64,000 nucleotides of DNA from the NCBI GenBank assembly GCA_010672825.2, contig JAAHFU020000003.1, forward strand, positions 930,001 to 994,000, given 5' to 3'. The translations under genes were made by a program, and so were the position numbers. The notes under the pieces are model-generated. The model was not told where the DNA came from and ran no database searches. It worked only from the letters and a program-made list of their open reading frames with translations. Origin of the DNA: Leptolyngbya sp. SIO1E4 (GTDB lineage Bacteria; Cyanobacteriota; Cyanobacteriia; Phormidesmidales; Phormidesmidaceae). Of this stretch, positions 7,127 to 58,913 are shown piece after piece; position 1 is the first letter of the stretch, and every line of letters begins with the position of its first letter.

Positions 7127-8362
7127 CTATGCGGTGAACTTATCGATGATGCGCTGCATAGCAGTTTCGACGTTATCTCGACTATTGAAAGCTGAAATAC
7201 GAAAATAGCCTTCTCCTGCCGATCCAAAACCAGAGCCAGGCGTACCCACCACGTGGCAGGTGTGGAGTAACTTGTCGAAAAAGTCCCAGCTGGACAACCC
7301 ATTGGGCGTTTTTACCCAAACATAGGGGGCATTAACGCCTCCATAGGTCGCAATTCCAGCAGCAGAGAGCTTTTCGCAAATGATGCGGGCATTTTCTAAG
7401 TAAAAGCTCACTAACTGCCCAATTTGAGTGCGTCCTTCTGAGCCATATACTGCTTCTGCGCCTCGCTGCACGATGTAAGAGACGCCGTTGAATTTAGTAG
7501 ACTGGCGGCGATTCCACAGGCGATGGAGTTCGACTTCAGTCCCATCTGAGACGGTTACCTTTAAGGATTTGGGCATGACTGTAAACGCACAGCGGGTTCC
7601 GGTAAAACCAGCATTTTTTGAGAATGACCGAAACTCGATCGCGCACTGGCGAGCGCCTGGAATCTCATAAATAGAGTGAGGAATTTCTGGATCCGTGATG
7701 TAGGCCTCGTAAGCGGCATCAAACAAAATGAGAGAGCCATGTTCGCGGGCATAGTTAACCCAGTCTTGCAGGTGTGCTTTTGTTGCGATCGCCCCAGTCG
7801 GGTTGTTGGGGAAGCACAGATAGATGAGATCCACTTTTTGAGTGGGGATGCGAGCGGTGAAATTGTTATCGGCAGAAATCGGCAGGTACACCAAGCCCTG
7901 ATAGATGCCATCTTCTTGGGCAGGGCCAGTGTGTCCAGCCATGACGTTGGTGTCTACATATACTGGATAGACGGGATCTGTCACCGCGATGGTGTTGTCA
8001 TGGCCAAAAATATCGAGGATGTTACCGCAGTCGCATTTAGAGCCATCGGAAATGAAAATCTCATCTGCGGTAATGTCGCATCCACGTGACTGAAAGTCAT
8101 GGCGAACAATTTTCTCCCGTAGCCAGGCATACCCTTGCTCAGGGCCATACCCTTTGAACGTAGCGCGATCGCCCATCTCTTCTACCGCTTTGATCATAGC
8201 GGTGCGGCAAGCTTCGGGTAAGGGTTCTGTCACGTCACCGATACCAAGTTTAATGATGGCTGCCTCAGGATTAGCCTCTGCAAAGGTTTTGACGCGGCGG
8301 GCAATTTCTGGGAAGAGGTAGCCCGCTTTCAGTTTCAAGTAATTCTCGTTGATCGTGACCAT
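7127..8362 (-). CDS. dapL: LL-diaminopimelate aminotransferase
   Basis: A 411-residue fold-type I PLP aminotransferase. It converts tetrahydrodipicolinate directly to LL-diaminopimelate in the lysine/peptidoglycan pathway used by cyanobacteria and plants. DapL features are the N-terminal [29 protein letters not shown] (about 103-111), the PNNPTG substrate/PLP loop (185-190), and the PLP lysine Lys249 in [12 protein letters not shown]. The length is normal. It is a single gene, convergent with the PEP-CTERM gene and divergent from psbA. Confidence 0.96.
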
Positions 8363-8763
8363 AGATGAATGAAATTCTCTTGCGGTGTTGTAGATCAGCT
8401 TACTTCGAACTGGGGTGCCGCGATTCTATAAGTTGCGGCTCTAGTCAAGACAGGCCGATGCAGGAAATATCAATAGCCCTGTTCATTTGAGTTCAGGACA
8501 TCTGGGTCAAGATGGGGCTAGGGTATGTCTTATCTGAATGCAAACCCCTTAATTTTTCAGGGTAACGTCACTGTAATGACCTGCATACCCCTGCCTAGAC
8601 TCGTTTGCAGATTCCTGCTGGTTACATCAACGAGACTTTCAATCCATACAGTAAAAACTTCACTAGCAATATACCCTCCACAATCAGGGCTGTCTTCCTA
8701 ATATCTTCATATTGTTTTGTTCTAATGGTGCCATTCACTTAGATGATTTCATCGTGAAGACCA
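8363..8763. other. Divergent dapL/psbA upstream region
   Basis: A 401-bp region with no gene. It holds one copy of the dispersed C-rich repeat (minus orientation, about 8471-8545) and the AT-rich leader of psbA. I see no strong Shine-Dalgarno before the psbA ATG, only GAAGA. Promoter elements could not be assigned with confidence. Confidence 0.45.
8471..8545 (-). repeat. Dispersed C-rich intergenic repeat, copy 1
   Basis: Read on the minus strand it contains CCCTAGCCCCATCTTGACCC and then AGATGTCCTGAACTCAA, matching copies near 20.4, 45.0, 51.5, 55.4 and 58.9 kb. The heptamer block is degenerate in this copy. Confidence 0.7.
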
Positions 8764-9843
8764 ATGACTACTTCTCTCCAACGTCAAGATATAAGCTCAT
8801 GGGAGAGATTCTGTAATTGGGTGACTAGCATCGAAAACCGACTCTATGTTGGCTGGTTCGGTGTCTTAATGATCCCACTTCTCGGAGTCTCTATCAGCGT
8901 TTTCGTAACAGCGTTTATCGCTGCTCCTCCTGTTGACATTGATGGCATTCGTGAGCCACTCGCTGGTTCGCTGCTCTATGGCAACAACATCATTACTGGA
9001 GCTGTGGTTCCCTCGTCTAATGCAATTGGCCTGCATTTTTATCCAATTTGGGAGGCTGCATCTCTTGATGAATGGCTCTACAACGGTGGGCCTTATCAAA
9101 TGATCGCTTTTCACTACATTCCGGCCCTACTTTGTTACATGGGTCGAGAGTGGGAGTTGAGCTATCGCTTAGGGATGCGCCCTTGGATTTGCGTGGCCTA
9201 TTCTGCGCCAGTGGCTGCAACCTCCTCTGTATTTCTGATTTACCCCATTGGTCAGGGCAGCTTCTCTGATGGCCTACCGATGGGCATCAGCGGGACATTC
9301 AACTTTATGTTCGTCTTCCAGGCAGAGCATAATATCCTGATGCACCCGTTCCATATGCTAGGGGTTGCAGGGGTGTTAGGAGGATCCTTGTTCTGTGCTA
9401 TGCACGGTTCTCTGGTCACTTCTAGCCTCATTCGCGAGACCACCGATCTCCAATCCCAAAACGACGGCTACAAGTTTGGTCAAGAAGCTGAAACTTATAA
9501 TATCCTTGCAGCTCACGGATATTTCGGTCGCTTGATCTTCCAATATGCCAGCTTTAATAACTCACGCTGGCTACACTTCTTCCTGGCAGCATGGCCGGTT
9601 GTGTGTATTTGGTTTGTAGCCCTGGGTATTAGCACCATGGCCTTTAACCTCAACGGATTCAACTTCAATCACTCCATCCTTGATTCTCAAGGGCGCGTGT
9701 TACCTAGTTGGGCCGATGTGGTCAATAGGGCTAACTTAGGCTTTGAAGTTCTGCATGAGCGCAACGCTCACAACTTCCCTCTAGATTTAGCAAGCGGAAC
9801 TGAAGTTCCAGTTGCCTATACGGCTCCTGTAATTCCCGCTTAG
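8764..9843 (+). CDS. psbA: Photosystem II D1 protein, divergent isoform
   Basis: A 359-residue reaction-centre protein of photosystem II, a thylakoid membrane protein with five transmembrane helices. Canonical ligands are present (numbering of ordinary 360-residue D1, this protein plus 1): Tyr161, Asp170, Glu189, His190, His198, His215, Ser264, His272, His332, Glu333, His337, Asp342 and Ala344 before a removable tail. It is therefore a functional D1, not a rogue form lacking the Mn ligands. Position 130 is Glu (high-light type) and Gly80 is kept, unlike the microaerobic D1' form. Unusual residues are the run YIPALL at 119-124, Val at 286, Ala at 243, and helix A ([13 protein letters not shown]). 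It stands alone with its own terminator. Confidence 0.97.
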
Positions 9844-12882: not shown

Positions 12883-13499
12883 CTGTTCTGCATTCAACAA
12901 CAACGGCCACTTGAACCTCGAAACCATTGGCCCCCCTTGAAAAAATCGCCGAGGACTGGTCGAACGGCGTAAACGCGGGAGACCCCGTCTAATTTCCCCT
13001 AATTCCGCTCGGCAAAAGGGAAGAGCTGGGTTTCCCCCCATGCTTTGGCGCAGCCTGCCCGGAGGGCTTATTACACCTGAAGTGCTGGTTAGGACAATCG
13101 GATTTCCTGGAATCCTTATGCAGCAAGGTTTTGCTTTCTGCCTTCTGCTTTCTACCTTTTGCGATAGGAGGGATTAAGAGAGATCATGCAGCACTGAGAT
13201 GGGCCAAACCGAAATGTGTATCAGCAATAGGGTGGGGTGGGGATGTTCAAGAAGATCAAGCTAGAGCATCTGTTCCGCGATGCCTGAGCCGGGCGCCTTC
13301 ACCCAGTGAATTCTGCTCTGATGCACGAGGTTGTCGTTAAGCTCGGATTAGACTCAATCTAGATGAGCAATTACGACGAGAGCAACTGTCTAATTTTATT
13401 TGATCAATGCAGCAGAAAATCTCTTTTTATTCCTTGGGGATAGATCAAAGAGACTCTTTTTGAATCAAATTAAATTAGAAAGATATCAAAAAATATTGG
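12883..13499. other. Long gene-poor region
   Basis: About 0.6 kb without a convincing gene. It holds a C/G-rich stretch at 12930-13060 that looks like decayed sequence, one copy of the GCAGAAG-type repeat (13073-13166, minus), and an AT-rich part with small imperfect hairpins before the terminator at 13500. A short non-coding transcript ending at that terminator is possible. Confidence 0.4.
13073..13166 (-). repeat. Dispersed GCAGAAG-rich repeat, copy 1
   Basis: On the minus strand this reads CGCAAAAGGTAGAAAGCAGA and continues through AACCTTGCTGCATAAGGATT to CAGCACTTCAGGTG. The same order occurs at 20189-20290 and 58738-58815. Confidence 0.8.
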
Positions 13500-20188: not shown

Positions 20189-20290
20189 CTAGCAAAAGGC
20201 AGAAATCAGAAAGCAGAAGGCAGAAATCAAAACCTTGCTGCATAAGGATTTCAGGGAATTTGACTTTCCTAACCAGCACTTCAGGTGCAA
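20189..20290 (+). repeat. Dispersed GCAGAAG-rich repeat, copy 2
   Basis: Starts AGCAAAAGGCAGAAATCAGA, continues through AACCTTGCTGCATAAGGATT and ends CAGCACTTCAGGTG. It begins right after the LGFP-gene stop and is followed by a palindrome and then the C-rich module. Confidence 0.8.
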
Positions 20291-20304
20291 TATCTCAATA
20301 CCGC

Positions 20305-20336
20305 CGGTAGGGACAGCAAATTTGCTGTCCCTACCG
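20305..20336. repeat. 32-nt perfect palindrome
   Basis: The arm CGGTAGGGACAGCAAA (20305-20320) is followed immediately by its exact inverse (20321-20336). The core GGGACAGC resembles the palindrome at 54752-54783. Two ATTGGGATCT units follow in tandem. It may act as the terminator of the LGFP gene. Confidence 0.85.
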
Positions 20337-20404
20337 ATTGGGATCTATTGGGATCTATTGGGCGTCCCTAAACGAAACTGATATCGCAGCACGCATTTGT
20401 GTTA

Positions 20405-20500
20405 TCGCGGTATGCAGGCTGATCAAGTACACCCTAGACCCCAAACCCTAGACCCTGTCTCAGCCAAGATGTACCGGACTCAACTGAACAGAGCCATAGA
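20405..20500 (+). repeat. Dispersed C-rich heptamer repeat, copy 2
   Basis: Begins CGCGGTATGCAGGCTGATCA, then a heptamer block CCCTAGA-CCCCAAA-CCCTAGA-CCC (20433-20456), then AGATGTACCGGACTCAACTG. The C-rich block has four runs of at least three C, so the other strand can in principle fold as a G-quadruplex. Confidence 0.8.
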
Positions 20501-20580
20501 ACAGTCCAGATAACTCAACTGCCCTCTAATCCAGCGTTTCATTCATCCTGCTGCCTTTTGCGAGACAACCAGCGTCGGAT

Positions 20581-44657: not shown

Positions 44658-45171
44658 GACTCACGCTAGGAATAAATGACTATAAACCGCTCAAGCAGAT
44701 GCTCTGAAACTATCTTCAACTGTCTTCTTAGGGGGCGGTATCAATCAGCATGAAGACATGACTAAACTAGCATCGCTTTTTAAGCAGGGAGGTTATCTAA
44801 AATTAAAAGGAAATTAACTCGGCGTTAAGCTTTGAGCAACTATCCCAGATCAAAATCAGGCAATCACAGTGTAGAAAAGGGTTTCGTTCATAACAATCGA
44901 ACCTGATACAGCGTTTCTGAATCCAGTGAGGTACACAGATCTACCTAGAACCCTTGATCTCAGGAAATATAGCGGTATGCAGGCTAATCAAGCACACCCC
45001 AAACCCCAAACCCCAAACCCTAGCCCCTGCCTTGACCCAGATGTACTGGACTCACCTGAACAAGGCTATAAGCTGTACCTCACCTAGAAAGGAAATGCTG
45101 TAAAAGGCGTTAGAAAGTCTCTGGCTAGACCTGTTCATATGAAGAATTTTGGACATGACACCCACAGGCCA
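44658..45171. other. Intergenic region with a C-rich repeat copy
   Basis: 514 bp without a gene. The left part holds the kinase promoter; the right part carries copy 3 of the dispersed repeat (44971-45070) before the 3' end of the CDF gene. Confidence 0.5.
44971..45070 (+). repeat. Dispersed C-rich heptamer repeat, copy 3
   Basis: Begins AGCGGTATGCAGGCTAATCA, then a heptamer array with CCCCAAA repeated three times and CCCTAGC, then CTTGACCCAGATGTACTGGA and a CTGAACAAGGCTATA end. This copy has the longest uniform heptamer run. Confidence 0.85.
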
Positions 45172-51390: not shown

Positions 51391-51862
51391 ATCAGGGAAA
51401 CAAGGGCATTTTGCCCCTCATATTAGCCAATGTCGTCGGCATCGCTGCGCTTACTAGCGGTGGGCATCTGGATAAACACACCCAAGACCCCATACCCAAG
51501 ACCCTGTCTTGACCCAAGGGTGCTGCACTCAGCTGAGGCCATAAGACATCACGCCATAACAAATGAAGCACTCAGGCAGCTAATACCCATTCTCGTTTCT
51601 AAAGCTACAGATCAGACCCCTCCCAGCCTCCCCTTGGCAAGGGGAGGTGCCGCAGGCGTTGGGGTGGCGATGTGTAGCGCTGATTTGGAGAATTGGTATA
51701 ACCCGATCGCCATCAAAGCCATCCACTTACTGCTTTAGAACAATTAGGTGAATACACGGGGACTCAACTTGTTGTAGAGTTTGCCAGAGAAAGCCCTTGT
51801 ATCCTTAACTACAACGAGATAGGGTAATTTCTTCGATTGCTTATGTGAGTCTTCGTGAGTCT
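51391..51862. other. Divergent intergenic region with a C-rich repeat copy
   Basis: 472 bp with no gene. It contains repeat copy 4 (about 51448-51546) and, at about 51616-51666, a CCTCCCCTTGGCAAGGGGAGG hairpin with a 21-nt palindrome-like core, a common cyanobacterial intergenic motif. Confidence 0.5.
51448..51546 (+). repeat. Dispersed C-rich heptamer repeat, copy 4
   Basis: Begins AGCGGTGGGCATCTGGATAA, has CCCAAGA-CCCCATA-CCCAAGA-CCC heptamers, then TGTCTTGACCCAAGGGTGCT and CACTCAGCTGAGGCCATAAG. It is a diverged copy of the same element. Confidence 0.75.
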
Positions 51863-55214: not shown

Positions 55215-55380
55215 GGGGCTCAACCTAGGGTGCTTTAGCCTCAGTCTAAGAAAACAATCTAAGGAAACGATGAAGAACAACGACTATTTCGGAGTTTCTT
55301 AGCGGTTAGACAGTATTTAAGGCAAAAAATAACCTGATTAGCGACGGCCAAATACCCTGCAGAACTGTTGACAGCCTTTT

Positions 55381-55447
55381 GCAGCTGAGTGAGGTACATT
55401 CTGGTCGCAATCGGGGCTAGGGTCTGGGGTTTGGGGTCTAAGGCTAG
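55381..55447 (-). repeat. Dispersed C-rich heptamer repeat, copy 5 (partial)
   Basis: On the minus strand it reads CCTTAGACCCCAAACCCCAG, then ACCCTAGCCCCGATTGCGAC, then AGAATGTACCTCACTCAGCT, matching the heptamer block and the conserved tail of the other copies. It lies just downstream of the GCS2-family gene. Confidence 0.7.
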
Positions 55448-55500
55448 TACTTCATCAGAGTGAGAAATGCGGTATCTTTGCCGGGCGATCGCCCAACGCG

Positions 55501-58671: not shown

Positions 58672-58737
58672 GAAACGGCCCTCCCTGGTTTGCTTCACCT
58701 CATATCATAGCGAGTCTGTTTAAGCAAATCCACGGTA

Positions 58738-58913
58738 TCGCAAAAGGTAGAAAGCAGAAGGCAGAAGGCAGAAATCAAAGCCTTGCTGCATCAGGATTTC
58801 AGGAAATCCGATTATCCTATAGCGGTGTGCATTCGGATCAAGCACACCCTAGACCCCAAACCCTAGACCCTGTCTTGACCCAGATGTACTGGACTCAACT
58901 GAACAAGGCTATA
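58738..58913 (+). repeat. Composite dispersed repeat: GCAGAAG module plus C-rich module (copies 3 and 6)
   Basis: 58738-58815 is the GCAGAAG-rich module (AAGCAGAAGGCAGAAGGCAG, CCTTGCTGCATCAGGATTTC). It runs directly into the C-rich module at 58820-58913 (AGCGGTGTGCATTCGGATCA, CCCTAGA-CCCCAAA-CCCTAGA-CCC, CTTGACCCAGATGTACTGGA). The same two-module order is seen at 20189-20500. Confidence 0.85.

What the first reader, a model, noticed from the sequence alone, without database searches (positions are those of the whole stretch)
20189..20500. Composite dispersed repeat with telomere-like heptamers
Two modules recur in intergenic DNA. Module A (GCAGAAG/GCAGAAA heptads, then CTTGCTGCAT(A/C)AGGATTTC) is at 13073 (minus), 20189 and 58738. 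Module B (AGCGGTATGCAGGCT..., heptamers CCCTAGA/CCCCAAA, then CTTGACCCAGATGTACTGGA) is at 8471 (minus), 20405, 44971, 51448, 55381 (minus) and 58820. A precedes B at 20.2 and 58.7 kb. The heptamer arrays resemble cyanobacterial STRR sequences, and the complementary strand has four GGG runs with 3-4 nt loops, so a G-quadruplex is possible. About six copies in 64 kb implies hundreds per genome.
Basis: seen in the sequence. Interest (0 to 1): 0.6.

Follow-up and report, generated by a model that had tools for sequence, protein, structure and literature searches.

The report
IS630 mini-transposons with seven-base-repeat cores
The repeats are two families of very short, non-coding jumping DNA elements of a known transposon type, scattered in hundreds of copies through a cyanobacterial genome, and unusually each carries a run of seven-base repeats inside.

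Summary
In detail: all nine reported copies are real (profile E 1.9e-11 or better; none in 20 shuffled windows). In a 1.264-Mb sample of the 8.22-Mb genome module B gives 119 hits and module A 51, extrapolating to about 770 and 330. Both are MITEs. Intact copies read TA-NNGC…GCNN-TA. Of 61 intact copies, nine find a gapless empty site in the genome when exactly one TA is kept; five other junctions give 0 to 3. B's 5' end matches terminal repeats of an IS630 lineage in this genome and in named cyanobacteria. A's 3' end shares an inner TIR motif with a second IS630 lineage; its 5' end does not. "A then B" is nesting, seen in both directions. B overlaps 72 of 157 canonical G-quadruplex motifs on 0.79% of the DNA. 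Relatives keep the seven-base period while unit sequences differ, some without enough G-tracts for a G4; but heptad cores are a minority (5 of 30 array-free loci). Free heptad arrays in another genome have no such ends (0 of 20). No host function is shown; a role for the core stays open.

The parts
20190..20290 (+). Module A MITE: TAGCAAAAGG, GCAGAA-type heptads, CTTGCTGCATAAGGATTTC, ...CCTAACCAGCACTTCAGGTGCAA; TA on the right at 20291-20292, left TA reads TC (decayed)
   Evidence: profile hit E 4.9e-28; ends read
20384..20563 (-). Older A-type MITE relic, interrupted by B (NNGC...AGGAC end at 20384; ...TTTTGC end near 20563)
   Evidence: A hit 20561-20483 E 3e-4; copy without B at L034:3766-3835, 87% over 70 nt, gapless; outer limits read by eye
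20405..20496 (+). Module B MITE (92 nt), TA at 20403-20404 and 20497-20498, inserted at GTTA/GGAC of the A-type relic
44970..45068 (+). Module B MITE with one extra heptad (99 nt), TA at 44968-44969 and 45069-45070
   Evidence: empty site 80 of 80 identical at L017:1382-1461
44909..45100 (+). Outer repeat 'D' (CAGCGTTTCTGAATCCAGTGAGGTACA...GTACCTCACCTAGAAAGGAAATGCTG) split by B; MITE-like ends resembling another IS630 TIR type (e.g. CAGCATTTATCATAAAGATGAGGTACA in L139)
   Evidence: limits read by eye
58738..58819 (+). Module A MITE, 5' part, TA at 58736-58737; B follows at the TA of ATCCTA. An A 3' remainder after B could not be recognised here
   Evidence: hit 58738-58823
58820..58911 (+). 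Module B MITE (92 nt), TA at 58818-58819 and 58912-58913
   Evidence: E 5.3e-30
13072..13165 (-). Module A MITE
   Evidence: E 1.6e-25
8473..8548 (-). Old B copy with a shortened array (ACCCTAGCCCC), between a PF00155 gene (7127-8362) and a PF00124 photosynthetic reaction-centre gene (8764-9843)
   Evidence: E 9.7e-14
51455..51536 (+). Old B copy
   Evidence: E 3.2e-16
55372..55468 (-). Old, divergent B copy (GCATTTCTCACTCTGATGAAGTACT subfamily)
   Evidence: E 1.9e-11
58847..58870 (-). Heptad core of the B at 58820; G-rich strand GGGTCTAGGGTTTGGGGTCTAGGG (four G-tracts), example of the potential G4
   Evidence: read; motif counts

Best explanation
Modules A and B are two families of non-autonomous miniature transposons (MITEs, about 101 and 92 bp) of the IS630 (Tc1/mariner-like) type. 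Each intact copy ends NNGC...GCNN and sits between duplicated TA dinucleotides. Module B has the terminal inverted repeat of an IS630 lineage (TAGCGGTRTGCA...AAGYACA). Module A carries at its 3' end the inner motif of a second IS630 lineage's TIR (GC, then AGGAC at positions 21-25). A DDE transposase supplied in trans would cut them out and insert them at TA; they insert into each other and into other repeats, which makes the 'composite'. Between the ends lies a short tandem array of 7-nt units that gains and loses whole units; in B the G-rich strand often matches a four-tract G-quadruplex motif. Shown: copy number, TA duplication with in-genome empty sites, TIR match (B) or partial match (A), nesting, 7-nt periodicity. 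Inferred: mobilisation by these particular transposases, slippage as the cause of unit number changes. Not shown: any G4 fold or any host function.
For: TA-NNGC...GCNN-TA at both ends in 61 of 106 copies examined (52 of 87 B, 9 of 19 A). Joined flanks with a single TA gave gapless empty-site matches for 9 of 61 (8 B, 1 A; one weak, 75% over 53 nt) against 1, 1, 3, 0 and 2 for five other junctions; the 44970 copy's empty site is identical over 80 nt. Bases outside the ends are close to random. L095, an IS630-type (PF13358) element of the same genome, has TA-TAGCGGTGTGCA... at both ends; its right end inward matches B's left end at 23 of 27 positions. Of 20 relatives of its transposase inspected for ends, six (L127-L130, L133, L161; among them CCT1, Leptolyngbya SIOISBB, Oscillatoria CS-180, Pleurocapsa MO_192) are 1,020-1,061 bp with TAGCGGT...TGC-type or closely similar TIRs. 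The L093 IS630 lineage has TA-NNGC-N16-AGGAC at both ends in 7 of 16 loci examined, at one end in 4, not in 5; A's 3' end has it at the same offset. A-into-B and B-into-A insertions.
Against: No intact source was found in this genome: the two B-type IS copies seen (L094, L095) each have an in-frame stop early in the first reading frame, and L095 also appears split by another insertion; but only 12 of the 21 PF13358 matches were inspected for ends. A's 5' end shares only TAGC with the second lineage's TIR. 45 of 106 copies do not keep both exact ends, which I take as decay. B's 3' end matches the IS TIR only imperfectly. The terminal dinucleotide is TA in 38 of 67 left ends and 51 of 67 right ends of stronger copies, more variable than a simple cut-and-paste model predicts. 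No same-genus genome was held, so strain polymorphism could not be tested.
Confidence: 0.9

Rival explanations
1. The element is kept for a host function, such as a transcription terminator, RNA-stability element or G4 switch at gene ends.
For: B is mostly intergenic (96 of 105 stronger hits) and enriched between convergent genes: 37 of 92 classified copies against 15% of intergenic bases. On a tree of full copies C-tract columns change less than C columns outside the array (terminal 2.54 vs 4.64 per column, internal 0.77 vs 2.79). 72 of 157 G4 motifs overlap B.
Against: No orientation preference between tandem genes (21 opposite, 18 same). Ordinary fold energies on both strands (z -0.3 to -1.6). 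Flanks random, many copies decayed. Rare substitutions (seen in one or two copies) are not fewer in C-tracts: 17 over 13 columns against 88 over the other 80 (from the list). Convergent placement is also what removal of harmful insertions near promoters would give. Gene calls were a crude longest-ORF set.
Confidence: 0.07
2. They are ordinary heptad tandem repeats (STRR) that arose in place by slippage, not mobile elements.
For: Seven-base arrays are common in cyanobacteria (PMC4692102, abstract, passages and two sections read), and free-standing ones are abundant in genome G353.
Against: Similarity extends over about 92-101 bp with fixed ends, TA duplications, empty sites and IS630 TIRs.
Confidence: 0.02
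3. They are REPIN- or IS200/IS605-type single-strand elements moved by a Y1 (HUH) transposase.
For: Y1_Tnp matches exist in the genome (4); the elements are small and intergenic.
Against: TA is duplicated and B's ends are inverted repeats of a DDE (IS630) element. Reading the B consensus I see no GTAG/GTGG tetranucleotide of the REP type (that feature as given in passages of PMC6006769); folds are ordinary.
Confidence: 0.02

Closest known systems
IS630-family (Tc1/mariner-like) MITEs of bacteria; family description recalled
   Same: Size, TA duplication, TIR shared with an IS630 element, no coding capacity, high copy, intergenic bias
   Different: The inside is a seven-base tandem array whose period recurs in related elements of other genera; copy number near 770 for B. 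My full-text searches listed no paper that ties heptad arrays to IS630 MITEs; of the papers listed I opened four
G-rich heptamer repeats of Nostoc PCC 7120 and Xanthomonas (Rehm et al. 2015, PMC4692102; abstract, passages, sections 11 and 16 read)
   Same: Seven-base units, G/C tracts, G4 motif, preference for four units, mostly intergenic, under-represented between divergent genes
   Different: There the arrays are treated as simple-sequence repeats, with no transposon link in the parts I read; here they are the inside of TA-flanked MITEs
STRR sequences of heterocystous cyanobacteria (Mazel 1990, recalled, not read)
   Same: Tandem heptanucleotides dispersed in the genome
   Different: A/B arrays have fixed transposon ends; 0 of 20 CCCCA(G/A)T arrays in G353 have TATAGC left and GCTATA right
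Cyanobacterial MITEs: Nezha (seen only in the reference list of PMC10969869) and the Anabaena sp. 90 MITEs (PMC3542288, passages read)
   Same: Short non-coding dispersed elements with terminal inverted repeats
   Different: The Anabaena 90 MITEs are called type II, without matching IS ends; B has matching IS630 ends; no heptad core is mentioned in the passages seen

Membership tests
IS630-type MITE (module B) | TA target duplicated on insertion | tested here: met
   8 B insertions with gapless single-TA empty sites (one weak); other junctions 0-3 in all
IS630-type MITE (module B) | Terminal inverted repeats shared with an IS630 transposase-bearing element | tested here: met
   L095 (23 of 27 at the 5' end), L127-L130, L133, L161; 3' end matches only imperfectly
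IS630-type MITE (module B) | No transposase of its own; moved in trans | tested here: inconclusive
   About 92 bp, too short for a transposase; intact source not found among 12 of 21 PF13358 matches inspected; trans mobilisation not testable
IS630-type MITE (module A) | TA target duplicated on insertion | tested here: met
   L065:7441 empty site (this case also matched at offsets 0, 3 and 6 because its host repeat is abundant); L004 by reading
IS630-type MITE (module A) | Both ends match an IS630 TIR | tested here: inconclusive
   3' end has GC-N16-AGGAC of the L093 lineage, GGTTAGGAC in full as at one end of several of its relatives; 5' end shares only TAGC
STRR / heptad simple-sequence repeat | Head-to-tail seven-base units | tested here: met
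   B in G000: lag-7 identity 0.69 over 18 copies, highest of lags 3-12
STRR / heptad simple-sequence repeat | Array stands alone without transposon ends | tested here: not met
   In the intact copies printed the array lies between the element ends
G-quadruplex element | Four G3+ tracts with loops of 1-7 | tested here: met
   71 of 119 B hits; the other 48 do not
G-quadruplex element | Folds into a G4 in vitro or in vivo | not testable with these tools
   Needs circular dichroism or G4 mapping
REPIN / IS200-IS605 derivative | No target duplication, foldback ends, Y1 transposase (features partly recalled) | tested here: not met
   TA duplication; ordinary folds

The most novel reading that the evidence does not exclude
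The seven-base array is a working part of these mini-transposons, not ballast. Between genera the unit sequence is replaced (TAGA/CAAA, TATT/TGCT, TACA/TATA loops; CACCTGA; TAGTCTC) while the period of seven and the place between the ends are kept, and in the closer relatives the C-tract spacing is largely kept too. The array may act as an adjustable spacer, or as a G4/i-motif that exposes the ends during replication and so favours transposition.
Probability: 0.23. Interest if true: 0.7.

Novelty: new variant of a known kind. Interest (0 to 1): 0.42.

Why it matters
It explains what disperses one class of heptad, G4-capable repeats in a cyanobacterial genome: IS630-type transposition. Nearly half of the canonical G4 motifs in the sample overlap one MITE family (72 of 157), so surveys of G4 motifs or simple repeats in such bacteria may partly be counting transposons. 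The recurrence of seven-base cores with changing sequence makes it testable whether the array helps the element move.

Tried and rejected
Composite A+B as one mobile unit: of the seven composite loci and the 20.2-kb window site read (the 58.8-kb site is L001), A's 3' remainder follows B in L002 and L003, and A lies inside B in L004; L065 is a further A-in-B case. At 58.8 kb (L001), L005 and L006 an A remainder could not be recognised, so a composite unit is not excluded there.

All cyanobacterial heptad arrays are MITE cores: not supported. Of 20 CCCCA(G/A)T arrays fetched from one genome (G353), one has TATAGC within 90 nt on the left (L364), none GCTATA on the right, none both; inverted similarity of TA-anchored flanks is no higher than for swapped flanks (mean 8.60 against 9.04 of 20).

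Heptad core universal in this MITE group: not supported. With an array-free 3' model (R2) 41 of 338 class genomes, own genome included, had hits at E <= 0.01. One locus each from 30 of the 41 was examined (those the tool returned); 5 of 30 (G000, G022, G047, G332, G306) have a lag-7 core at shuffle p <= 0.01. The rest have palindromic or unrelated cores, or may be chance hits or bare IS630 ends; G325 and G134 have period 8.

G4 as the conserved feature: weakened. Selected G332 and G307 copies keep period 7 with no run of three C3+ tracts 7 apart (0 of 3, 0 of 2), although another G332 locus has GGGGCTA units (L295) and one has CCCCTAG units (L297). In G022 only 2 of 14 copies have four tracts 7 apart (8 of 14 have three); G006 7 of 9 and 9 of 9; G047 2 of 2; G000 14 of 18 and 16 of 18. 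The G022, G006 and G047 copies were found with a model that includes the array (R1), so their array retention is biased by the search.

Hairpin RNA/DNA: no unusual stability. Rate test: slower C-tracts on the tree but no deficit of rare substitutions; alignment gaps and search bias could contribute.

Full report
Setting. The window is C3:930001-994000 of an 8.22-Mb, 12-contig genome, G000. It holds a photosynthetic reaction-centre gene (PF00124, 8764-9843), and the nearest hits of its IS630 transposase in named genomes are filamentous cyanobacteria, so I take the host to be a cyanobacterium. One genome of the same family, G047, has a contig of exactly the length of the Leptolyngbya sp. SIOISBB contig (7,873,556 bases), so I take G047 to be that organism.

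Observation. All nine copies were confirmed by BLAST and by profile, with no hit in 20 dinucleotide shuffles. In the window plus 60 systematically placed 20-kb stretches of contigs C1-C5 (1.264 Mb), an iterated profile finds 119 B hits (93 near full length) and 51 A hits (38 near full length). That extrapolates to about 770 and 330 per genome, fragments included.

Boundaries. Aligned copies lose similarity abruptly at TA-NNGC on the left and GCNN-TA on the right. Of 106 copies with both ends in the profile and enough flank, 61 keep both exact ends (52 of 87 B, 9 of 19 A); the other 45 were not used in the empty-site test. The commonest distance between TAs is 92 nt for B (38 of 52) and 101 nt for A (7 of 9).

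Target duplication. With the flanks of the 61 joined and one TA kept, nine find a gapless empty site in other sequence held from this genome: B at L032, L079, L069, L062, L036 (two), window 20404 and window 44969, and A at L065; one (L036:5391) is weak, 75% over 53 nt. Five other ways of joining gave 1, 1, 3, 0 and 2, partly the same sites (the L065 case, in an abundant repeat, matched at several offsets). The 44970 copy matches its empty site in L017 at 80 of 80 positions. At least six of the nine empty sites are in other copies of repeats, where an unfilled copy can be found inside one genome. No same-genus genome was held.

Parents. The genome has 21 PF13358 (DDE_3) matches, 20 over the cut-off; 12 were returned as loci and inspected for ends. 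L095 is an IS630 element with TA-TAGCGGTGTGCA... at both ends. Its right end inward, TAGCGGTGTGCAGATCAATCAAGCACA, differs from B's left end, TAGCGGTATGCAGGCTAATCAAGCACA, at four of 27 positions. L094 carries the same left end. Both have an in-frame stop, and L095 appears split by another insertion. Of 552 confirmed relatives of the transposase domain 80 were kept and 20 inspected for ends; six are 1,020-1,061 bp with the same TIR type (L127-L130, L133, L161), others have (C/T)AGCA...GAGGTACA-type ends (e.g. L139, L142, L176), like the outer repeat that hosts the 44970 copy, and in a few no convincing ends were found. A second IS630 lineage (L093) has TA-NNGC-N16-AGGAC at both ends in seven of 16 loci inspected (L377-L381, L396, L400), at one end in four (L382, L397, L399, L401) and not in five. 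A's 3' end, TTGCACCTGAAGTGCTGGTTAGGAC, has AGGAC at the same place, and the longer GGTTAGGAC as at one end of L378-L380, L396 and L397; this genome's own L093 copy has ATTAGGAC and AGCAGGAC. A's 5' end shares only TAGC, so A's assignment is less firm than B's.

Nesting. At 20.4 kb B sits at GTTA/GGAC of an A-type relic. L002 and L003 show A continuing after B; L004 and L065 show A inside B. In three composites the A remainder could not be seen.

The core. B's array is CCCTAGA CCCCAAA CCCTAGA CCC, with gain and loss of whole units (lengths 78, 92, 99 and 106 among others). The sample has 157 canonical G4 motifs; 72 overlap B (within 10 bp), and 71 of 119 B hits carry one, while B covers 0.79% of the DNA. 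On a tree of full copies C-tract columns changed less (2.54 terminal, 0.77 internal per column) than C columns outside (4.64, 2.79). Against this, rare substitutions are not fewer in C-tracts (17 over 13 columns; 88 over the other 80; list).

Relatives. With a B model that includes the array (R1), 6 of 57 family genomes had hits at E <= 0.001, own genome included (G000, G022, G006, G065, G047, G016). Copies fetched from three of them (20 from G022, 18 from G006, 2 from G047) have the same layout with other units: CCCCATT/CCCTATT/CCCTGCT in G022, CCCTACA/CCCCACA/CCCTATA in G006, CCCTGTT/CCCTACT/CCCTATT in G047. In G006 both TIR halves differ from B's in parallel (TATAGCGGTTTTCATTTGCATTGACTACA with TATAGCAATTCTCGCTTGTGTTGAATACA), as expected if ends follow their own transposase (by reading). 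With an array-free 3' model (R2), hits occurred in 41 of 338 class genomes; of one locus each from 30 of them, 5 had a lag-7 core at shuffle p <= 0.01. Further G332 and G307 copies have period-7 cores, some without three regularly spaced C3+ tracts. Over chosen copies in six genomes (18, 14, 9, 2, 3 and 2) lag 7 is the highest of lags 3-12 in every genome, 0.65-0.84. The G332 and G307 copies there were picked because they looked periodic, so they are illustrations, not a rate. A-type hits occur in 33 of 57 family genomes at E <= 0.01; many may match only the GCAGAAG repeat, but loci of G009, G015 and G047 extend into the TGTCC(T/G)AA end.

Free arrays elsewhere. Genome G353 (which I call Nostoc-type only from its CCCCA(G/A)T arrays, a recalled trait) has 192 and 198 pattern matches on the two strands. 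None of 20 arrays fetched has TATAGC left and GCTATA right; one has TATAGC on the left only. So MITE dispersal accounts for the A and B arrays, not for heptad arrays in general.

Context. With crude longest-ORF gene calls, 96 of 105 stronger B hits and 31 of 37 A hits are intergenic, although 82% of the sample is called coding. B is over-represented between convergent genes (37 of 92 against 15% of intergenic bases) and shows no strand preference between tandem genes (21 against 18). This fits insertion in many places with removal of costly insertions; a role at gene ends is not excluded.

Literature. Full-text searches of the open library listed no paper that ties heptad arrays to IS630 MITEs. 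The nearest is Rehm et al. 2015 (PMC4692102; abstract, passages, sections 11 and 16 read), which describes G4-forming heptamers in Nostoc and Xanthomonas with a preference for four units and leaves their role open. PMC3542288, PMC6006769 and PMC10969869 were seen in passages only. Elhai 2008 on small dispersed repeats and Mazel 1990 on STRR are recalled, not read.

Verdict. Ordinary in kind (IS630 MITEs), unusual in copy number and in the heptad core. Unexplained: the terminal dinucleotide of B is TA in only 38 of 67 left ends but 51 of 67 right ends, and why period seven persists in several lineages while the unit sequence turns over.

Noticed in passing
window 51583-51699: A third dispersed repeat of about 120 bp (ATACCMRTTCTC...GAGAATTGGTAT), with inverted ends and at least a dozen relatives in the 1.264-Mb sample; B is inserted in one copy at L079:9439.
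   Followed up: partly
window 44909-45100: Outer MITE-like repeat D (CAGCGTTTCTGAATCCAGTGAGGTACA...) that hosts the 44970 B copy; a copy without B is in L017.
   Followed up: partly
window 20305-20336: A 32-bp perfect palindrome between the A copy and the nested B copy.
   Followed up: no
B copies in the sample, terminal dinucleotides: The two bases inside the left TA vary (TA 38, CA 9, TC 8, TT 4, others 8 of 67), also among copies otherwise nearly identical; inside the right TA they are TA in 51 of 67.
   Followed up: partly
L042:2939-4288: A B copy appears split inside its heptad array by a 1.3-kb insertion with ends TAGTGGTGCAGAAAA...TTTTCTGCACCAC, probably another IS.
   Followed up: no
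G353 and G307: Genomes with very many CCCCA(G/A)T array matches (192 and 198 in G353, 523 and 818 in G307, by strand, overlapping matches counted); 20 arrays of G353 have no paired transposon-like ends.
   Followed up: partly
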